Origin: Arthrobacter sp. CJ23
GTDB lineage: Bacteria > Actinomycetota > Actinomycetes > Actinomycetales > Micrococcaceae
Length of the DNA: 64,000 nt
Assembly: GCF_024741795.1 (NCBI RefSeq)
Contig: NZ_CP102950.1
Location: forward strand, 124,001 to 188,000
Direction: 5' to 3'
Numbering within the stretch: position 1 is the first letter of the stretch; every line of letters starts with the position of its first letter. Made by a program: the position numbers and the translations under genes. Positions 6,375 through 60,818 of this stretch are shown here, one piece after another. The notes beneath the pieces were generated by a model. It did no database searches. It was not told the DNA's origin and was given only the letters and a program-made list of their open reading frames with translations.

Positions 6375-11576
<5,202 letters not shown>

Positions 11577-11773
11577 ACACAAACAAAACACTTGCTTGCG
11601 TCCACTATGTGGTTCCCGACCAACAAACCCAAACCGCGGTTTGCACGGCACAGGAACACAACCACAACTAAACAACAACAACACCACACCTGCCCGCACG
11701 GGCAGGAACATGTTGTAACCACGGATTTCCCACCCCCGCCACCGCCAGGTGAGTGCGGGGGACGGGACACAGG

Positions 11774-11893
11774 GTTACGGCGGTCACAGCGTGGGGGAAA
11801 CGCCCGGTCCCATTCCGAACCCGGAAGCTAAGACCCACAGCGCCGATGGTACTGCACCCGGGAGGGTGTGGGAGAGTAGGACACCGCCGGACA
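11774..11893 (+). rRNA. rrf: 5S ribosomal RNA, operon 1, first copy
   Basis: About 120 bases from GTTACGGCGGTCAC to ACACCGCCGGACA, whose ends pair as in 5S rRNA. The internal CCCATTCCGAACCCGGAAG loop is typical. It lies 197 bases after 23S and is identical in its core to the copies at 12028 and 20153. Confidence 0.95.
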
Positions 11894-11909
11894 ACCATTC
11901 AGGTCGAGC

Positions 11910-11931
11910 GCCCCCAACCCCGGTTGGGGGC
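11910..11931 (+). terminator. hairpin between the two 5S genes of operon 1
   Basis: CCCCCAACC (11911-11919) pairs with GGTTGGGGG (11922-11930), extended by one G-C pair, loop of two bases. The same hairpin follows the single 5S of operon 2. Here transcription must pass it to reach the second 5S. No T-run follows, so termination is probably partial. Confidence 0.6.
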
Positions 11932-12027
11932 ACTCCCATGGATAGTTTGCAAAACTGAATACGAGCACTGAAGTAGTAACCACGAGTCTTCCCACCCCTG
12001 GCGCAGCCAGGCGGAGCGGGTCACAGG

Positions 12028-12147
12028 GTTACGGCGGTCACAGCGTGGGGGAAACGCCCGGTCCCATTCCGAACCCGGAAGCTAAGACCCACAGCGCCGA
12101 TGGTACTGCACCCGGGAGGGTGTGGGAGAGTAGGACACCGCCGGACA
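12028..12147 (+). rRNA. rrf: 5S ribosomal RNA, operon 1, second copy
   Basis: A second 5S gene 254 bases after the first, with the same 120-base core. The bases before it (12019-12027, GGTCACAGG) resemble those before the first copy, so this looks like a small duplication. Operon 2 has only one 5S. Confidence 0.94.
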
Positions 12148-12157
12148 ACCATTCAGT

Positions 12158-12197
12158 ACAGAAGCCCCGACCATGACGGTCGGGGCTTCTGTCATTT
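12158..12197 (+). terminator. terminator of rRNA operon 1
   Basis: A 15-bp perfect stem (12158-12172 with 12178-12192, ACAGAAGCCCCGACC / GGTCGGGGCTTCTGT), a five-base loop, then CATTT. It directly follows the second 5S. Confidence 0.9.
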
Positions 12198-12344
12198 AAC
12201 AAGCACCTGCCCGTGCATTCCGGCCCGAGCAGGACCAAAGTGTGAGAATGACAACGTCGCCCCGTTCTTGATTCAATCCAGCAAGGGCCGGGCGTCAGGA
12301 TCCCCAGCTGGGGTGACCCGATGGATCTCAACAGGAATGGCCGG

Positions 12345-12662
12345 ATGACACGTGTTGGTATAGAGGATGTTCGCACGGAGATTGATGCGCTGGATCGGCA
12401 GATCGTTGAACTCCTGTGCCGGCGGCAGCATTGGGTGGTGGAGGCCGGCAAGCTGAAGAGCGATCCGGGCGCGGTCCGGGCTCCGGACCGCGTTGAGCAG
12501 GTCATTTCCAAGGTGCGTGCCTTGGCTGTGGAGCTTGGTGCGGCCCCTGACGTTGTAGAGCGAACGTACCGGGCGATGATCGCGGCCTTCATCGACCTTG
12601 AGCTGACCATCCACGAGAACCACCGCGATTCGGCCTCGGCCACCCAGAGCAACGCTGTCTGA
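12345..12662 (+). CDS. chorismate mutase, AroQ (type II) family
   Basis: The enzyme converts chorismate to prephenate, toward Phe and Tyr, in the cytosol. ATG 12345 (105 residues) has AGGA eight bases upstream; an in-frame ATG at 12321 would add eight residues. The all-helical AroQ signature is visible: 'VRTEIDALDRQIVELLCRRQ' (helix 1, Arg10), then Lys37/Lys39, 'VRAPDRVEQV' (Arg46, Arg50, Glu52) and the last helix 'VVERTYRAMIAAFIDLE'. It is monofunctional: no dehydratase or ACT domain. It stands alone between the two rRNA operons. A 12-bp palindrome CCCCAGCTGGGG (12302-12313) lies just upstream. Confidence 0.88.
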   Translation: MTRVGIEDVRTEIDALDRQIVELLCRRQHWVVEAGKLKSDPGAVRAPDRVEQVISKVRALAVELGAAPDVVERTYRAMIAAFIDLELTIHENHRDSASATQSNAV

Positions 12663-12693
12663 TCCGGATTGCCAGCGGCATCCCTCGGCCATG

Positions 12694-13035
12694 TCAGCTG
12701 GCCGGGTCGTAGTGGAACTGCCGGAGCTCTTGCGAGCAGCGGCAGGCGACGGCGATCTTCGCGGCCCACTCGAGTGCGGCCTCCCGCGAGGGCAGCTCGA
12801 GAACGGTGTAGCCGCCGTTGGGCACCTTGTGGCCTGGGTACGTGCCCTCGGTGACGGTGCCGTCACCGGCCACGAGCACCGGGTCCACGTCCTCATCGAT
12901 CCCGCCGCCGAAGACGTACACGCCCGCCGCCTTGGCCTCGTCGATGACGGCATGCGAGGCTTCCACTACCGACTCGAAGTCCTCCTCGGGGATCACCATG
13001 GCCTCACCGGGGAACGAGATCAGGTACTTCGTCAT
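12694..13035 (-). CDS. YciI-like (DGPF domain) family protein
   Basis: 113 residues reading 'MTKYLISFPGEAMVIPEEDF', with the ferredoxin-like fold pattern of YCII-related proteins and a central 'GGGIDEDVDPVLV'. It ends in a short tail with Cys-Arg-Cys. AGAGGAG lies nine bases before the start. Such proteins are often found with ECF sigma factors, but none is here. It converges on the chorismate mutase gene. The function is unknown. Confidence 0.8.
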   Translation of the reverse strand: MTKYLISFPGEAMVIPEEDFESVVEASHAVIDEAKAAGVYVFGGGIDEDVDPVLVAGDGTVTEGTYPGHKVPNGGYTVLELPSREAALEWAAKIAVACRCSQELRQFHYDPAS

Positions 13036-13052
13036 TCGAAGACTCCTCTACT

Positions 13053-13072
13053 CCGGCGGCGCCATCCGCCGG
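13053..13072. repeat. inverted repeat upstream of the YciI-like gene
   Basis: CCGGCGG (13053-13059) and CCGCCGG (13066-13072) around six bases, 18 bases before the YciI-like start on the minus strand. It could be an operator; no matching regulator is nearby. Confidence 0.3.
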
Positions 13073-13237
13073 CTCCTCTCTGCGGCACCGCTCTGGTGCC
13101 CAGCCCGATTATGGCTCCGACGCCCGCCACGTCGTCAAGGTGCAGCGACGCCGTATCCGGCATGAGGCCGATGGCGCACCGCTTCGCGGGCGTGCTAGCT
13201 TTCAGTGATCGTGATCTATCGGCAGGAGGTGAGTCCC

Positions 13238-13297
13238 ATGAACGCAGTATCCGCAGTGGGTGCTCCCTTGCAGTCCACGATCGCTCGACTGAGGTAG
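13238..13297 (+). CDS. possible 19-residue leader peptide or gene remnant
   Basis: AGGAGGT at 13224-13230 is the strongest ribosome site in this segment. It precedes an ATG at 13238 that opens a frame of only 19 codons (MNAVSAVGAPLQSTIARLR) ending at TAG 13295. The patatin-like gene begins 47 bases later in another frame. It could be a translated leader, or the start of a gene broken by a frameshift. No known family is recognised. Confidence 0.4.
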   Translation: MNAVSAVGAPLQSTIARLR

Positions 13298-13344
13298 TCG
13301 CCACCGGGAGCGCCCCATCAGGCAATTCGCGAAAGGCGACTCCC

Positions 13345-14340
13345 ATGAACACAACACCTTCTTCACCTCTGCACTCCATTTCCACGGCGGCCACCGAGCT
13401 GCCGAGGTCTGACCAGGATCACCCACAGGTCGACGCCACAAGCCGGGTACACGGAGCGGGTGAGCGAGCGTTGGTCCTCGGTGGTGGCGGATCGGCGGGC
13501 AATGCCTGGCTGATCGGCGTCATCGCCGGCCTGTTCGAAGCCGGGTTGGATGCAAGGGAGACGGACCTGATCATCGGCACGTCGGCAGAATCTACTGCCG
13601 CGGCCCAGATCACCAGCGCCACCTCGAATGAACTGCTGGCCGCCATCCTTTCCGCCGCACCCCAGCCACGCACTGCTCCGGCGGGATCCGACGGCGGACG
13701 CGTTCACAGTGGAGCGGCGGCGAACCATATGGAGAGAACGAGCCGAATCATCGCCGCCGCTGAGGATGCTGCCGACATGCGCCGCAGAATGGGTGCGGCG
13801 GCGCTCGAAATCGACGCGGCGTCGGACGGCTCCGGGCAAACGCGGTGGCGCGCTACCGTCGCCACCCGGCTGCCCAGCCGGCACTGGCCGAAACAAACGC
13901 TGCTCATCACGGCGGTCAACGCCTCTACCGGTGAACCGGTCGTGTTCGACCGCCACAGCGGCGTCGACCTGGTGGACGCCGTGGCTGCCAGCTGTGCCAG
14001 TGGCTTCGCCTACAAGATCGGCGGCAGCCGATACATCGACGGCGGCTACCGATCCAACGCCGAGAACGCCGATCTGGCGGCCGGATACGCACGGGTGCTG
14101 GTGCTGTCGCCATTCGGCGGCAGATCACGGACTCCGGTGGGGTGGGGCATGCATCTCGCGACACAGGTCTACGAACTGCGTGCACGCGGCGGCAGAGTCG
14201 AAACGATCTTCCCGGACAGCAACTCCGAGCACATGTTTGGTGCCAATGCGATGGATCTGTCACTGCGTCCGCCCGCCGCTCGAGCCGGTTACGAGCAAGG
14301 CAGGGCCCTTGCCGGGCAACTCACCGAATTCTGGCGCTGA
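13345..14340 (+). CDS. patatin-like phospholipase family protein with altered nucleophile elbow
   Basis: 331 residues from ATG 13345 (GAAAGG eight bases upstream); a longer in-frame extension has no ribosome site and reads as noncoding. The oxyanion loop 'LGGGGSAG' is at residues 45-52, the nucleophile Ser80 in 'IGTSAEST', and the second dyad residue Asp232 in 'YIDGGY'. Family members have GxSxG, but here the last Gly is Glu82. Ser and Asp remain, so activity may persist or be lost. The substrate would be an acyl lipid. It sits alone, 50 bases before the second rRNA leader. Confidence 0.85.
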   Translation: MNTTPSSPLHSISTAATELPRSDQDHPQVDATSRVHGAGERALVLGGGGSAGNAWLIGVIAGLFEAGLDARETDLIIGTSAESTAAAQITSATSNELLAAILSAAPQPRTAPAGSDGGRVHSGAAANHMERTSRIIAAAEDAADMRRRMGAAALEIDAASDGSGQTRWRATVATRLPSRHWPKQTLLITAVNASTGEPVVFDRHSGVDLVDAVAASCASGFAYKIGGSRYIDGGYRSNAENADLAAGYARVLVLSPFGGRSRTPVGWGMHLATQVYELRARGGRVETIFPDSNSEHMFGANAMDLSLRPPAARAGYEQGRALAGQLTEFWR

Positions 14341-14390
14341 TGCCCACCGCGAACCTGACCGGAAACGAGGCCGCGCGGACCGATGCAGCG

Positions 14391-14753
14391 TGTTTGGGGT
14401 GGATTTGCGTGGGGGTGTGGGTGGGTGTATTGTTTTCTGAGTCGCCGGGTGCGGAACGGAAAGCCGGAAGGTGTGTATGTTTCGGATGGCGGCCAAATAA
14501 TCTCCTTTTTCCAATGGCTTGTTGGTGTGTCTTTTGTGGCGTGCTGGCGGGTGATGAATCATGGGGTCTGTTGTTTGAGAACTCAATAGTGTGCCAAGTT
14601 TGTTGATACCGATTTGTTTTTATGAATTGGTTGATTTGCCGGGTTGCCCGCACCCCCGTGTGTGGTGGCCTGGTTTCAGCTGGTTTCAAATTTTGTGCAG
14701 CCTTCTTTCCCCGTGTTTCCGGGGGTGTTGGTTGTGTCTGTTTTTGTTTTACT
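14391..14753 (+). repeat. rRNA operon leader, copy 2
   Basis: Identical to 6012-6374. It starts abruptly 50 bases after the patatin gene stop and includes the same promoter pair (14405-14433) and boxA-like element (14571-14591). Confidence 0.9.
14405..14433 (+). promoter_or_regulatory. candidate rRNA promoter of operon 2
   Basis: TTGCGT, 17 bases, TATTGT, the same as in operon 1. No terminator was seen between the patatin gene and this promoter, so read-through into the rRNA operon is possible. Confidence 0.5.
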
Positions 14754-19956
<5,203 letters not shown>

Positions 19957-20152
19957 ACACAAACAAAACACTTGCTTGCGTCCACTATGTGGTTCCCGAC
20001 CAACAAACCCAAACCGCGGTTTGCACGGCACAGGAACACAACCACAACTAAACAACAACAACACCACACCTGCCCGCACGGGCAGGAACATGTTGTAACC
20101 ACGGATTTCCCACCCCCGGCACAGCCAGGCGAGTGCGGGGACGGGACACAGG

Positions 20153-20272
20153 GTTACGGCGGTCACAGCGTGGGGGAAACGCCCGGTCCCATTCCGAACC
20201 CGGAAGCTAAGACCCACAGCGCCGATGGTACTGCACCCGGGAGGGTGTGGGAGAGTAGGACACCGCCGGACA
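20153..20272 (+). rRNA. rrf: 5S ribosomal RNA, operon 2
   Basis: Same core as both 5S genes of operon 1. The 23S-5S spacer just before it differs from operon 1 by several substitutions (near 20117-20140), which look like true divergence rather than read errors. Confidence 0.95.
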
Positions 20273-57377: not shown

Positions 57378-57396
57378 TCCCCACCGCCGCCCTAAC

Positions 57397-57501
57397 CTCG
57401 CAAGCTCGGCCAGGGAACCCTGGCGGCGTGGGCCCAACCAGCCGCTCCCCAGGCTCGCACGCTCGCCCGGGGGACCCCTGCGGCTGTGGGCCCAGCCCAG
57501 C
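57397..57501. repeat. degenerate tandem duplication downstream of pstB
   Basis: Two units of about 46 bases, starting CTCGCAAGCTCG (57397) and CTCGCACGCTCG (57454), both continuing through GTGGGCCCA, are about three-quarters identical. Each can form GC-rich hairpins. Noncoding. Confidence 0.5.
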
Positions 57502-57601: not shown

Positions 57602-57657
57602 GCCCAACTGGGTCGCAGCAGGTGTCGTTTTGAGCCTCCAAAACGACACATGCTGCT
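57602..57657. repeat. REP-like palindrome interrupted by the IS element
   Basis: GCCCAACTGGGTCGCAGCAGG... pairs with ...CAAAACGACACATGCTGC, after which the expected right arm is missing. It is a diverged copy of the intact palindrome at 30037-30104. The break coincides with the putative IS end at 57656-57658; a weak continuation (CTACTTACTTGGGG) is found at the other IS end, 59261. Confidence 0.6.
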
Positions 57658-57749
57658 AGTCCGAAAATGAGGTGATGTGCGTTCGTTGGCGCGCGTGTTT
57701 GGGCATCCGGGGGCGAAAGGCAGCCCTCGGTGGACGGGGAATGTTGGAG

Positions 57750-59030
57750 TCAGGCGGCAGGGGTCAGGGTGACGGTGTAGCCGAGGGCCTCGAGTTGCCG
57801 GATGTGGCTGTGCTTCCTGGTTTCGGGGTTGGTGTGGCGGGTGAAGTGGTCGGCGCCGAGATCCTGGAACCGTGTGTCCGGGCCCTGCAGGAGGTGCCAG
57901 ACGATGACGAGGATGGAACGTCCGATGGCGACAATGGCGCGTTTCTTGCCCCGCCGCCGGACGAGCCTTCGGTAGCGTTCGCCCAGGAAGGTATTGGTCT
58001 TGCCGGCTCCGAAGGCGGCCTCGCCAAGGGCCCGGGCGAGATAGCGGTTGCCGTGCCCGGTCGAGCCGTTTCCTTTGGTCTTGCCTGCGGAGGAGTTGAT
58101 GCCCGGGGAGAACTTTGCCCAGGAACACAGGTGCCCCGCGGTCGGGAACCGGGACATGTCGACCCCGATTTCGGCCAGAACTACGGCGGCGGCGATGGGG
58201 CCGATGCCCGGGATCTCATCCAGGCGTTTGGCCGCCGCGGCGAAAGGGGCCAGCTGGACCTCGATCTGTTCATCGAGCGCGGCGATATCGGTGTCGATGC
58301 CGTCAATCCTTGCCAGCATCCGGGCGAGCAGGAAGCCGTGGTGGTCATCGAAGCGGCCGGTGAACGCCTCCTCCAGTTCGCTGATCTTCCTGCGCATGCT
58401 GGAGCGTGCCAGCTGCGCGAGCACGCCCGGGTTGCGTTCTCCGGCGATGAGCGCTGCCATCATTTCCCGGCCGGACACCCCGAAGGTGTCCGAGGCCACC
58501 GAGGAGAGTTTGATGCAGGCGTCCTCGAGGAGTTTCTCGACCCGGTTCTTCTCCGCGGTCCGGGTCCCGACCAGGTCAATCCGGTACCGGGTCAGGTCCC
58601 GGAGCCTGCGGATCGGGGCGGGCGGGACGAAGCTGGGCCGGAGCATCTGCCGTTCGGCGACCTTGCACAGCCACACCGCATCCAGCACATCGGTTTTGGG
58701 ACGTCCCGGCAGATGCTTCACGTCGCGGGCGTTGACCAGCCACGGTTCGAGCCCGTGCGCCTCGAGGAGGTAGAACACCGGCTTCCAGTAGTCGCTGGTC
58801 GCCTCCATCACCACCCGCTCGATGCGCAGGTCCACGAGATGGTTGGCCAGGTCCGCCAACGAACGGGTCATGGTCGAATGCGTGGACACCTCCTGCAACC
58901 GTTTCTTTCGGTTCCCCTCCGCGGGGACCCGCACGCAACACACGAGTTCGGCCTTGCCAATGTCGATCCCGGCGACCCTGGCAATGATCTGTTCCTCATC
59001 CTGGGTTTCAGCCAGCATGATCCTGCTCAT
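57750..59030 (-). CDS. IS110-family DEDD transposase (bridge recombinase)
   Basis: 426 residues. The RuvC-like DEDD domain shows Asp23 ('GIDIGKAE'), Glu76 ('VVMEATSDYWKPV') and Asp114/Asp117 ('KTDVLDAVWL'). After a coiled linker the C-terminal domain has 'IPGIGPIAAAVVLAEIG' and 'KGNGSTGHGNRYLARAL', where the catalytic Ser lies in this family. Start 59030 has GGAG directly against the ATG; ATG 59018 is a plausible alternative. The frame is intact, so the element may be active. Confidence 0.92.
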   Translation of the reverse strand: MSRIMLAETQDEEQIIARVAGIDIGKAELVCCVRVPAEGNRKKRLQEVSTHSTMTRSLADLANHLVDLRIERVVMEATSDYWKPVFYLLEAHGLEPWLVNARDVKHLPGRPKTDVLDAVWLCKVAERQMLRPSFVPPAPIRRLRDLTRYRIDLVGTRTAEKNRVEKLLEDACIKLSSVASDTFGVSGREMMAALIAGERNPGVLAQLARSSMRRKISELEEAFTGRFDDHHGFLLARMLARIDGIDTDIAALDEQIEVQLAPFAAAAKRLDEIPGIGPIAAAVVLAEIGVDMSRFPTAGHLCSWAKFSPGINSSAGKTKGNGSTGHGNRYLARALGEAAFGAGKTNTFLGERYRRLVRRRGKKRAIVAIGRSILVIVWHLLQGPDTRFQDLGADHFTRHTNPETRKHSHIRQLEALGYTVTLTPAA

Positions 59031-59043
59031 CTCCTCACGGCGC

Positions 59044-59202
59044 GGCCCTTCTGAATATCGAAGTGGCCGCCCGTGGGGATCACCAGGGACAACGGGAATC
59101 TAGTCCTCGTTCTCGATGAAAGGAACAATGAAGGGCCCACAACGTGACCCCCAACGCCCGGCTACTTAGCGGCCTCAACGAACCATGGAAGCACGGCGTT
59201 GG
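59044..59202 (-). ncRNA. predicted bridge RNA of the IS110 element
   Basis: Read on the minus strand, CCAACGCC (59195-59202) pairs with GGCGTTGG (59151-59158), closing a 36-base loop; then GGCCCTTC (59130-59137) pairs with GAAGGGCC (59044-59051), closing a second, larger loop with inner ATCGA/TCGAT. The first loop contains TAAGTAGC, matching the flank junction at 59260-59267; the second contains GGACTAG, matching the opposite element end at 57656-57662. Two loops carrying target- and donor-like guides are the known form of IS110 bridge RNAs. Folding was done by eye. Confidence 0.5.
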
Positions 59203-59264
59203 CAGGCGGCCACAAGCACATTTTCAGCCCGGAACGGGCGTCCCGCAAGGGACACAAAGGCTAC

Positions 59265-60818
59265 TTACTTGGGGAGTGGGGCGGGGGCGTGCTCTGCCTC
59301 GCTGGGGTGGGTCCCGCCGTCGAGCGGCTTCCGGGGCCCGAAGCGGCGCCACCCGAGGGCCAGCAGCGGCCAGGCGAGGATCAGCGCCACGATTGCGTAC
59401 ACCGCCACGCCCACGGGCTCGTTCCACAGCCCGTTGATGTCGCCGGCGCTTAGCTGCAAGGCCTTGCGCAGCTGGCCCTCGAGCCGGGGGCCCAGGATCA
59501 GGCCGATGATCAGGGGCAGGACCGGAAGGCCGAAACGCCGCATGGCGAAGCCCAGGGCACCCAGCACCAGCAGGATGATCAGGTCGAACGCCTGCATGTT
59601 GACCGCATAGGCGCCCAACGTGGCGAAGAACAGAATTCCTGCGTACAGGTAGGGCCGGGGAATCCGCAGCAGCTTGGCCCACAGGGGCGCCATGGGCAGG
59701 TTGATCACCAGGAGCAGGGTGTTCCCGATGAACAGGCTGGCAATGAGGCCCCAGACCAGCACGGGCTCGTTCTGGAACAGGAGGGGGCCGGGCTGGATGC
59801 CGAACTGCACCAGGGCCGCGAGCATGACTGCCGCGGTGGCGTTGGTCGGCAGGCCCAGGGCCAGCAGGGGAGTCAGTGTGCCGGCGGCCGAGGCATTGTT
59901 GGCGGCCTCGGGACCTGCCACGCCTTCAATGGCACCATGCCCGAATTCGTCCTTGTGCTTGGAGAGCTTCTTTTCGATCGAGTAGGACAGGAAGGTGGGG
60001 ACCTCGGCGCCGCCCGCCGGCATGGCGCCGAACGGGAAGCCAAGCGCGGTGCCGCGGAGCCACGGCTTCCAGGAGCGCTTCCAGTCCTGTTTGCCCATCC
60101 ATGGCTGGCCCACCGGGATGGTGGACATCTTGTTGCGCCGAAGGTGCGCCGCGATCCACAGGGCTTCACCGACGGCGAAGATCGCCACGGCCACCACTAC
60201 GATGTCCAGGCCATCGGTCAGCAGCGGGATGCCGAAGACCAGGCGCTGCTGGCCGGTCACAGGATCCATGCCGATCAGGCCGATGGCCAGGCCGAGGCCA
60301 AGGGACGCGAAGCCGCGGAGCTTGGAGGCTCCCAGGACGGCGGTCACGGTCAAGAGGCCCAGGACCATGATGGCCAGGTAGCTGGACGGGCCCAGGCTCA
60401 CCGCGAACTTCACCACGAAGGGGGCGAAGGCTGCCAGGAGCGCGGTGCCGATGGTGCCGGCCACGAAGGAGCCGATGGCAGCCGTGGCCAGGGCCTGTGC
60501 CGCCCGGCCTGCCTTCGCCATCTTGTGGCCCTCGATGGCCGTGATGACGGTGGAGGATTCGCCGGGGGTGTTCAGCAGGATGGATGTGGTGGAGCCGCCG
60601 TACATGCCGCCGTAGTAGATGCCGGCGAACATGATGAGCGCACTGGTGGGCTCGAGGTTGTAGGTCAGCGGCAGGAGCAATGCCACCGCCATGGCCGGGC
60701 CGATGCCCGGCAGCACGCCCACCGCTGTGCCAAGGAGCACGCCGAGGCAGGCAAACAGAAGGTTCATGGGGGTCAGCGCTGTGGCAAACCCGCCCAGGAG
60801 CAAGTTGAACGTATCCAT
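59265..60818 (-). CDS. tctA: tripartite tricarboxylate transporter, large permease TctA
   Basis: 517 residues from ATG 60818, about twelve membrane helices. Family motifs '[20 protein letters not shown]', '[22 protein letters not shown]', '[16 protein letters not shown]' and '[17 protein letters not shown]'. Works with TctB and TctC to import citrate-like acids. Its stop lies at the edge of the IS element, so the insertion spared the gene. Confidence 0.94.

What the first reader, a model, noticed from the sequence alone, without database searches (positions are those of the whole stretch)
57656..59267. IS110 element with a recognisable bridge RNA whose loops match its own junctions
The noncoding region upstream of the transposase (minus strand) folds by eye into two stem-loops (stems 59195-59202/59151-59158 and 59130-59137/59044-59051). 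The first loop carries TAAGTAGC (59161-59168), identical to the flank plus core at 59260-59267. The second carries GGACTAG (59100-59106), identical to the other element end plus core at 57656-57662. IS110 bridge RNAs have exactly one target loop and one donor loop sharing the core. Caveats: the target match lies on the 3' side of its loop, where I would expect the opposite-sense guide, and no right-hand guide complement was visible for either loop.
Basis: partly seen in the sequence, partly recalled or inferred. Interest (0 to 1): 0.75.

Follow-up and report, generated by a model that had tools for sequence, protein, structure and literature searches.

The report
IS110 with mirror-image bridge RNA
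This bacterial jumping gene appears to carry a guide RNA that picks its landing site by base pairing, but the guides sit in the reverse order from the best-studied relatives, and the same reversed layout turns up in relatives from several bacterial phyla.

Summary
The window holds one of six copies of this IS110-family element in the genome. All six lie in an arm of a REP-like palindrome. Across relatives, the 3' side of loop 1 copies the left flank: 5 of 5 bases in 34 of 44 loci, at least 4 in 42 of 44, 0 of 5000 shuffles as good. The 5' side matches the reverse complement of the right flank, more weakly, over 4 bases next to the core. Loop 2 copies the right element end, exact in 36 of 41. 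A strong consensus fold exists only on the transposase strand.

Target, core and donor are read on the strand opposite to the transposase: the mirror of IS621 and ISEc21, and the order reported for IS1111, although the RNA lies upstream as in IS110. The 17 mirrored rows tested form one group on a transposase tree, apart from IS621-like and ISEc11-type rows. The papers I searched showed no description of it, but figures and preprints were not visible. Transcription and activity are untested.

The parts
57658..59262 (-). IS110 element, about 1605 bp including one copy of the core dinucleotide (CT on plus, AG on the transposase strand)
   Evidence: six copies, 99-100% identical, with different flanks; RE and LE boundaries agree with relatives
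57656..57657 (.). core CT at the right-end (RE) junction
   Evidence: within the TAGC shared by both junctions; narrowed to AG/CT by relatives, whose RE ends in AG in 39 of 42 kept loci with an RE
59261..59262 (.). core CT at the left-end (LE) junction
   Evidence: as above
57750..59030 (-). IS110 transposase/recombinase, 426 aa
   Evidence: PF01548 + PF02371 over cut-off; NF033542 IS110 family RNA-guided transposase; PDB sequence relatives ISCro4 9t56 and IS621 8wt6
59064..59212 (-). conserved core fold of the predicted bridge RNA: closing stem, target loop, donor loop
   Evidence: 30-sequence consensus, 17 of 33 pairs with at least one kept change on both sides; tnp strand -37.95 vs antisense -5.22 kcal/mol
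59227..59253 (-). two small 5' hairpins of the left end, before the core fold
   Evidence: in the minimum-energy fold; only two pairs of the second are in the consensus fold
59155..59198 (-). target-binding loop hairpin; outer stem 59195-59198/59155-59158, inner stem 59181-59185/59170-59174
59187..59193 (-). 5' target guide TGCTT-CC (acts like an LTG on the strand opposite to tnp)
   Evidence: 4 nt next to the core co-vary with revcomp of the right flank: 2.40 vs 1.12 of 4, 0 of 5000 shuffles, n = 35; this copy matches 3 of 4
59162..59168 (-). 3' target guide TAAGT-AG (acts like an RTG on the strand opposite to tnp)
   Evidence: 5 nt next to the core equal the left flank, 5/5 in 34 of 44 loci, 0 of 5000 shuffles; position-resolved
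59074..59153 (-). donor-binding loop hairpin (stems 59145-59153/59074-59082 and 59136-59138/59086-59088)
59100..59106 (-). 3' donor guide GGACTAG, same sense as the right element end
   Evidence: 6-nt identity with own RE exact in 36 of 41 loci, 0 of 5000 shuffles
57658..57669 (-). donor half in the right end: CATTTTCGGACT before core AG
59219..59225 (-). GAAAATG of the left end, reverse complement of 57663-57669; nearly invariant in relatives
   Evidence: last base co-varies with the RE copy, 0.81 vs 0.37, 0 of 5000 shuffles, 42 loci
57663..57669 (-). CATTTTC of the right end, partner of 59219-59225
57603..57657 (.). target, inner part: most of a REP-like palindrome, up to the core
   Evidence: empty copies in this genome; the repeat has a match in 50 of 61 genus genomes searched, own included
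59263..59274 (.). target, outer part: rest of the REP arm (ACTTACTTGGGG)

Best explanation
This is an IS110-family element whose transposase most likely works with a bridge RNA transcribed from its own strand, just upstream of the gene. Loop 1 holds two short guides that pair with the two strands of an 11-bp target (4 + core + 5); loop 2 pairs with the joined element ends. The core is CT, but on the strand opposite to the transposase gene. On that strand the geometry is the canonical one: the 5' guide pairs with the bottom strand on the left, the 3' guide with the top strand on the right. So the RNA + transposase cassette is inverted relative to the target and donor sites, compared with IS621 and ISEc21. 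Shown by sequence: co-variation of both target guides and one donor guide, the core, the RNA strand, the fold, and the target in REP arms. Inferred: that the RNA is made, binds the transposase and directs recombination as in IS621.
For: 3' guide vs left flank: 5/5 in 34 of 44 loci, at least 4 in 42 of 44, own mean 4.70 vs 2.12 shuffled, 0 of 5000; positions -3 to -7 co-vary, -8 and -9 do not. 5' guide vs revcomp right flank: positions -3 to -6 co-vary (at most 7 of 5000 shuffles each), -7 to -9 do not, and shifts of -1, +1 and +2 nt give no signal. The canonical order was tested and not supported: 5' guide vs left flank 413 of 5000, 3' guide vs revcomp right flank 866 of 5000 (whose 3' anchors were wrong in several loci). 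RE in donor loop exact in 36 of 41. RNA strand. Enterobacterial IS621-like yardsticks have the left-flank copy on the 5' side in all 3 with a match of 8 nt or more (L148, L161, L164) and in 8 of 11 overall; some of the 11 share a site, so they are not independent. REP arms: of 6 occupied arms 4 read TAAGTAG; of 24 uninterrupted arms sampled none does. L067, L117 and L126, three copies in one other genome, read TAGGTAG in both guide and flank. All 14 K. philippinense copies have one loop (GTGCGTTAGTC) and left flank GC(G/A)TTAG.
Against: No RNA or activity data. The 5' guide is weak: at least 3 of 4 in only 17 of 35 loci, 4/4 in 6; the right-flank match was best for its own RNA in only 13 of 41 and often lay outside the 5' loop; the window copy has C where U is expected at the second core position (three of the six copies have U). 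The second donor guide was not found (n = 11). Some flanks match poorly: L130 and L138 on the left, K. philippinense right flanks show no consensus. Donor exceptions: L077, L096, L114, L118, L120. Guide anchors were taken at the best of a few positions, for own and shuffled pairs alike; where several TTTTCG were present, the RE was chosen by agreement with the donor loop, which favours the donor result. Relatedness is only partly removed by de-duplication. The ISEc11 check is partial (see full report).
Confidence: 0.88

Rival explanations
1. Ordinary IS621-type bridge RNA; the reader's 3'-side match is a coincidence and the real guides are in the canonical order.
For: Upstream location and the two-loop fold fit.
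Against: Canonical pairings are not supported (413 and 866 of 5000) while the mirrored ones exceed every shuffle.
Confidence: 0.03
2. The guide RNA is transcribed from the opposite strand, antisense to the transposase.
For: It would put the RNA on the strand where the core reads CT.
Against: Antisense consensus fold is -5.22 vs -37.95 kcal/mol; 179 G-U cells vs 9 A-C cells in the tnp-strand fold; single sequences fold better on the tnp strand in 26 of 30. The guide halves would then sit on the wrong sides of the target compared with IS621.
Confidence: 0.04
3. Loop-flank identity is not guidance: the element carries the matching bases with it, or captures flanking DNA into the RNA gene.
For: Left flank TAAGTAG in 4 of 6 copies is absent from 24 sampled empty arms, and no base-level empty site was found for any copy.
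Against: Two of six copies have CTAGTAG next to the same 3' guide; K. philippinense flanks vary GCG/GCA beside one fixed loop; several relatives share a loop at different sites, e.g. TCGTCTAG in L070, L071, L099, L102, L116, L134; the right flank is matched too.
Confidence: 0.05

Closest known systems
IS621 (PMC11208160; outline, section 12 and passages seen)
   Same: DEDD + PF02371 transposase, RNA in the left end, two internal loops, CT core, 11-bp target, REP elements among its targets
   Different: IS621: 5' guide same sense as the left flank, split 7+2+2. Here mirrored relative to the transposase, split 4+2+5; transposase about 100 aa longer
ISEc21 (PMC11187229, section 12)
   Same: upstream noncoding region giving a seekRNA
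   Different: there the top-strand match is 3' of the bottom-strand match; here it is 5'
IS1111 group, e.g. ISEc11 (PMC11187229 section 9; partial own check)
   Same: same guide order as reported; an inverted repeat exists inside the ends here (7 nt)
   Different: IS1111 RNA lies downstream of the gene, transposase about 340 aa; here upstream and 426 aa; the repeat is asymmetrically placed
ISArsp3 (name from plasmid annotation)
   Same: 48.9% identical transposase, same mirrored layout by eye
   Different: other target
ISPpu9 (PMC8450116, abstract in a search listing only)
   Same: IS inserted into REP sequences, with small RNAs described
   Different: not compared by sequence here

Membership tests
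IS110 family (RNA-guided DEDD transposase) | PF01548 + PF02371 domains over cut-off | tested here: met
   94.1 and 63.6 bits; NF033542 268.7 bits, cut-off 140
IS110 family (RNA-guided DEDD transposase) | noncoding region encodes a structured RNA with target and donor loops | tested here: met
   sequence evidence only
IS110 family (RNA-guided DEDD transposase) | RNA is expressed and binds the transposase | not testable with these tools
   no expression data
IS621/ISEc21-type guide order | long noncoding region upstream of tnp | tested here: met
IS621/ISEc21-type guide order | 5' guide same sense as left flank, 3' guide complementary to right flank | tested here: not met
   413 and 866 of 5000 shuffles
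IS1111 group | RNA downstream of tnp | tested here: not met
   fold lies upstream
IS1111 group | 5' guide complementary to right flank, 3' guide same sense as left flank | tested here: met
IS1111 group | subterminal inverted repeat of 7-17 bp | tested here: inconclusive
   7 nt, one base co-varying, but about 35 nt inside one end and 6 nt inside the other
IS110-proper subgroup (395-455 aa transposases, PMC11187229 section 6) | transposase length and phylogenetic position with IS110 itself | tested here: inconclusive
   the 22 rows of the group are 402-453 aa; IS110 itself was not placed on the tree

The most novel reading that the evidence does not exclude
A large, phylum-spanning subgroup of IS110 elements forms a third bridge-RNA architecture: RNA upstream as in IS621, but target, donor and core all read on the opposite strand as in IS1111. 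In addition, the nearly invariant GAAAAUN of the RNA region may pair with N'ATTTTC of the right end as a further RNA-donor contact beyond the published guides.
Probability: 0.3. Interest if true: 0.75.

Novelty: new variant of a known kind. Interest (0 to 1): 0.57.

Why it matters
Guide order has been reported as a difference between the IS110 and IS1111 families (PMC11187229 section 14). Here the order is uncoupled from RNA position, so predicting targets by the IS621 rule would fail for these elements. It suggests a testable path between the two families (inversion of the cassette rather than only a move of the RNA), and points to long natural recombinases with a more even 4+2+5 target split. 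It also explains why this element sits in REP-like palindromes.

Tried and rejected
Rfam at gathering scores gave no bridge-RNA family, only rRNA. The first 5'-guide parser crashed and mis-anchored several loci; replaced. still anchored the 3' guide or the left flank wrongly in several loci (L001, L074, L120, L124, L130, L082), which lowers its numbers; one search takes the best of a few anchors instead. The first transposase tree used wrong strands or frames for some rows; discarded. Donor left guide: not found. Base-level empty site: the same intergenic locus in G289 (L180) lacks the IS but carries a different palindrome. Among the 11 canonical yardsticks, L160, L145 and L140 gave only 5-nt matches, on the other side, and are uninformative. 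ISEc11-type copies: both have a 9-nt reverse complement of the right flank in the downstream region, but I did not find a convincing left-flank partner in both, and L141's left flank has an 11-nt same-sense match further 5' that L143 lacks; the IS1111 order therefore rests mainly on the paper. Rows dropped before counts: of 95 loci tried, 14 failed parsing and 81 were parsed; 34 of the 81 were dropped as copies, near-copies, N-containing or wrong anchors, leaving 47. The genome-contig scan kept the best 80 of 96 matches.

Full report
OBSERVATION. The window lies at 124001-188000 of a 4.63-Mb single-contig genome. The gene 57750-59030 (minus, 426 aa) carries PF01548 and PF02371 over cut-off, matches NCBIfam 'IS110 family RNA-guided transposase', and by sequence is related to the solved ISCro4 and IS621 transposases. 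Rfam gathering thresholds gave only rRNA in the window.

COPIES AND TARGET. The genome holds six copies at 99-100% identity. All six sit in an arm of a REP-like palindrome of the form CCCAACTxxGTAGCAG..GTCGTTTTG..CAAAACGAC..CTGCTAC..AGTTGGG. Empty copies occur elsewhere in this genome, and the repeat has a match in 50 of 61 genomes of the genus that were searched, own included. The two junctions share TAGC on the transposase strand; comparison with relatives, whose right end stops in AG in 39 of 42 and AA in 3, narrows the core to AG (CT on plus), at 57656-57657 and 59261-59262. In transposase orientation the left flanks are TAAGTAG in four copies and CTAGTAG in two; of 24 uninterrupted arms sampled by a pattern from the fetched loci, none reads TAAGTAG (one unrelated match of the 25 listed was set aside). 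4 of 6 against 0 of 24 has a hypergeometric probability of 0.0005. The sample was gathered by similarity to the window's own repeat, so it is not a full census.

RELATIVES. A scan of genome contigs gave 79 distinct loci, capped at the best 80 of 96; a family search gave matches at E 1e-60 or better in 16 of 295 genomes. From the upstream and downstream regions I tried 95 loci: 14 failed parsing, 81 were parsed, and 47 were kept after removing near-copies and bad anchors.

GUIDES. Without assuming positions, the left junction has a longest same-sense match of 9.02 nt on average with its own RNA region and 5.60 with others'; 0 of 2000 shuffles reach this, and its own RNA is the best of the row in 41 of 47. 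The reverse complement shows nothing (699 of 2000). The right flank plus core matches as reverse complement (4.95 vs 4.43, 0 of 2000; best of the row in 13 of 41), not in the same sense (547 of 2000). Position by position, the 3' side of the target loop agrees with the left flank at the five positions next to the core and not beyond, and the 5' side agrees with the reverse complement of the right flank at the four positions next to the core and not beyond; shifts of -1, +1 and +2 remove the signal. With better anchors: 3' guide 5/5 in 34 of 44 and at least 4 in 42 of 44; 5' guide mean 2.40 of 4 against 1.12, with at least 3 in 17 of 35. The opposite (IS621) assignment is not supported (413 and 866 of 5000). 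The right element end (6 nt including the core) recurs in the 3' side of the donor loop, exact in 36 of 41, 5.78 against 4.41, 0 of 5000 shuffles. I did not find the other donor guide.

FOLD AND STRAND. Thirty aligned noncoding regions give a consensus with a long closing stem, a target hairpin with outer and inner stems, and a donor hairpin; 17 of 33 pairs have at least one kept change on both sides. The guides lie in the two strands of the internal loop of the target hairpin. The single sequence folds better than shuffles (z -2.33, 4 of 200 as good). The consensus fold of the complementary strand is weak (-5.22 against -37.95), and the tnp-strand helices hold 179 G-U cells against 9 A-C cells, so the RNA is read from the transposase strand.

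MIRROR ORDER. IS621 is described with the left target guide pairing with the bottom strand on the left and the right guide with the top strand on the right (PMC11208160, passages). ISEc21 is reported with the top-strand match 3' of the bottom-strand match, and IS1111 members with the opposite order (PMC11187229, sections 9, 12 and 14). In my own yardsticks, relatives of IS621 by sequence (for L140), from enterobacterial plasmids and chromosomes, the left-flank copy is on the 5' side in all three cases with a match of at least 8 nt and in 8 of 11 overall. Two ISEc11-type copies show a 9-nt reverse complement of the right flank in the downstream region, but the left-flank partner was not clear. 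The window element and its relatives show the reported IS1111 order, with the RNA upstream. Seven further loci, from Glutamicibacter (ISArsp3), Paenibacillus, Alicyclobacillus, Caballeronia, Variovorax, Citrobacter and Aminobacter, show the left junction copied on the 3' side with 7-10 nt; their junctions were set by eye, so these are weaker than the shuffled tests. On a transposase tree the 17 rows labelled as mirrored lie on one side of one branch (98/97), apart from IS621-like and ISEc11-type rows; five unlabelled rows lie there too, two of which (L142, L168) are among the seven just named. The 22 rows are 402-453 aa, matching the 395-455 aa subgroup that includes IS110 itself (PMC11187229 section 6), but IS110 itself was not placed.

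EXTRA PAIRING. GAAAATN about 35-38 nt inside the left end and its reverse complement N'ATTTTC 6 nt inside the right end are nearly invariant, and N co-varies (0.81 against 0.37, 0 of 5000, 42 loci). This may be an IS1111-like subterminal repeat or, because the left copy lies beside the RNA fold, an RNA-donor contact. I cannot tell which.

MECHANISM. The most likely reading: the transposase with this RNA excises the element as a circle, pairs loop 2 with the joined ends and loop 1 with an 11-bp site (4 + CT + 5) in a REP arm, and recombines at CT. The steps beyond pairing and fold are inferred from IS621. REP arms offer a frequent, mostly intergenic target (my inference).

LITERATURE. Searches in the held PMC library (ISAar29; REP) listed the two 2024 Nature papers (PMC11208158 seen in listings only), the seekRNA paper, reviews and genome papers; none of the passages I saw describes upstream-RNA elements with this order. 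Extended Data Fig. 10 of PMC11208160 covers ISAar29, ISPpu10 and ISHne5, but figures are not held, so earlier notice by those authors is possible. A Kocuria paper (PMC12500396, passages) names an IS110 element with a seekRNA region; the passages give no guide order. A REP survey (PMC12306157, one passage) tabulates REPs in an Arthrobacter.

Noticed in passing
L084 left junction (Kibdelosporangium philippinense): The left end abuts another copy's noncoding region exactly at its own 3' guide (GTGCGTTAG), as if the element had targeted its own guide; the right flank is not the continuation, so the event is not simple.
   Followed up: partly
window 57380-57500: The stretch after pstB (cgcaagctcggccagggaaccctggcggcgtgggccc) matches several neighbouring places in relatives L179 and L181.
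   Followed up: no
window 6375-20271: Two rRNA operons about 8.4 kb apart, the first with two 5S genes.
   Followed up: no
L177 (Variovorax): The element seems to be followed directly by a second copy of its left end, a head-to-tail tandem.
   Followed up: no
G000:C1:2134772 (L149), 1960469 (L150), 1629253, 2481415, 3068114: Five other PF02371 loci in the same genome; their guide order was not determined.
   Followed up: no
window 57750-59030: Weak NCBIfam similarity to TIGR-Tas endonuclease (25.8 bits, cut-off 100).
   Followed up: no
left junctions of L061, L063, L068, L115: In several relatives the target TAG looks like a gene's stop codon, which the insertion would preserve; by eye only.
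   Followed up: no
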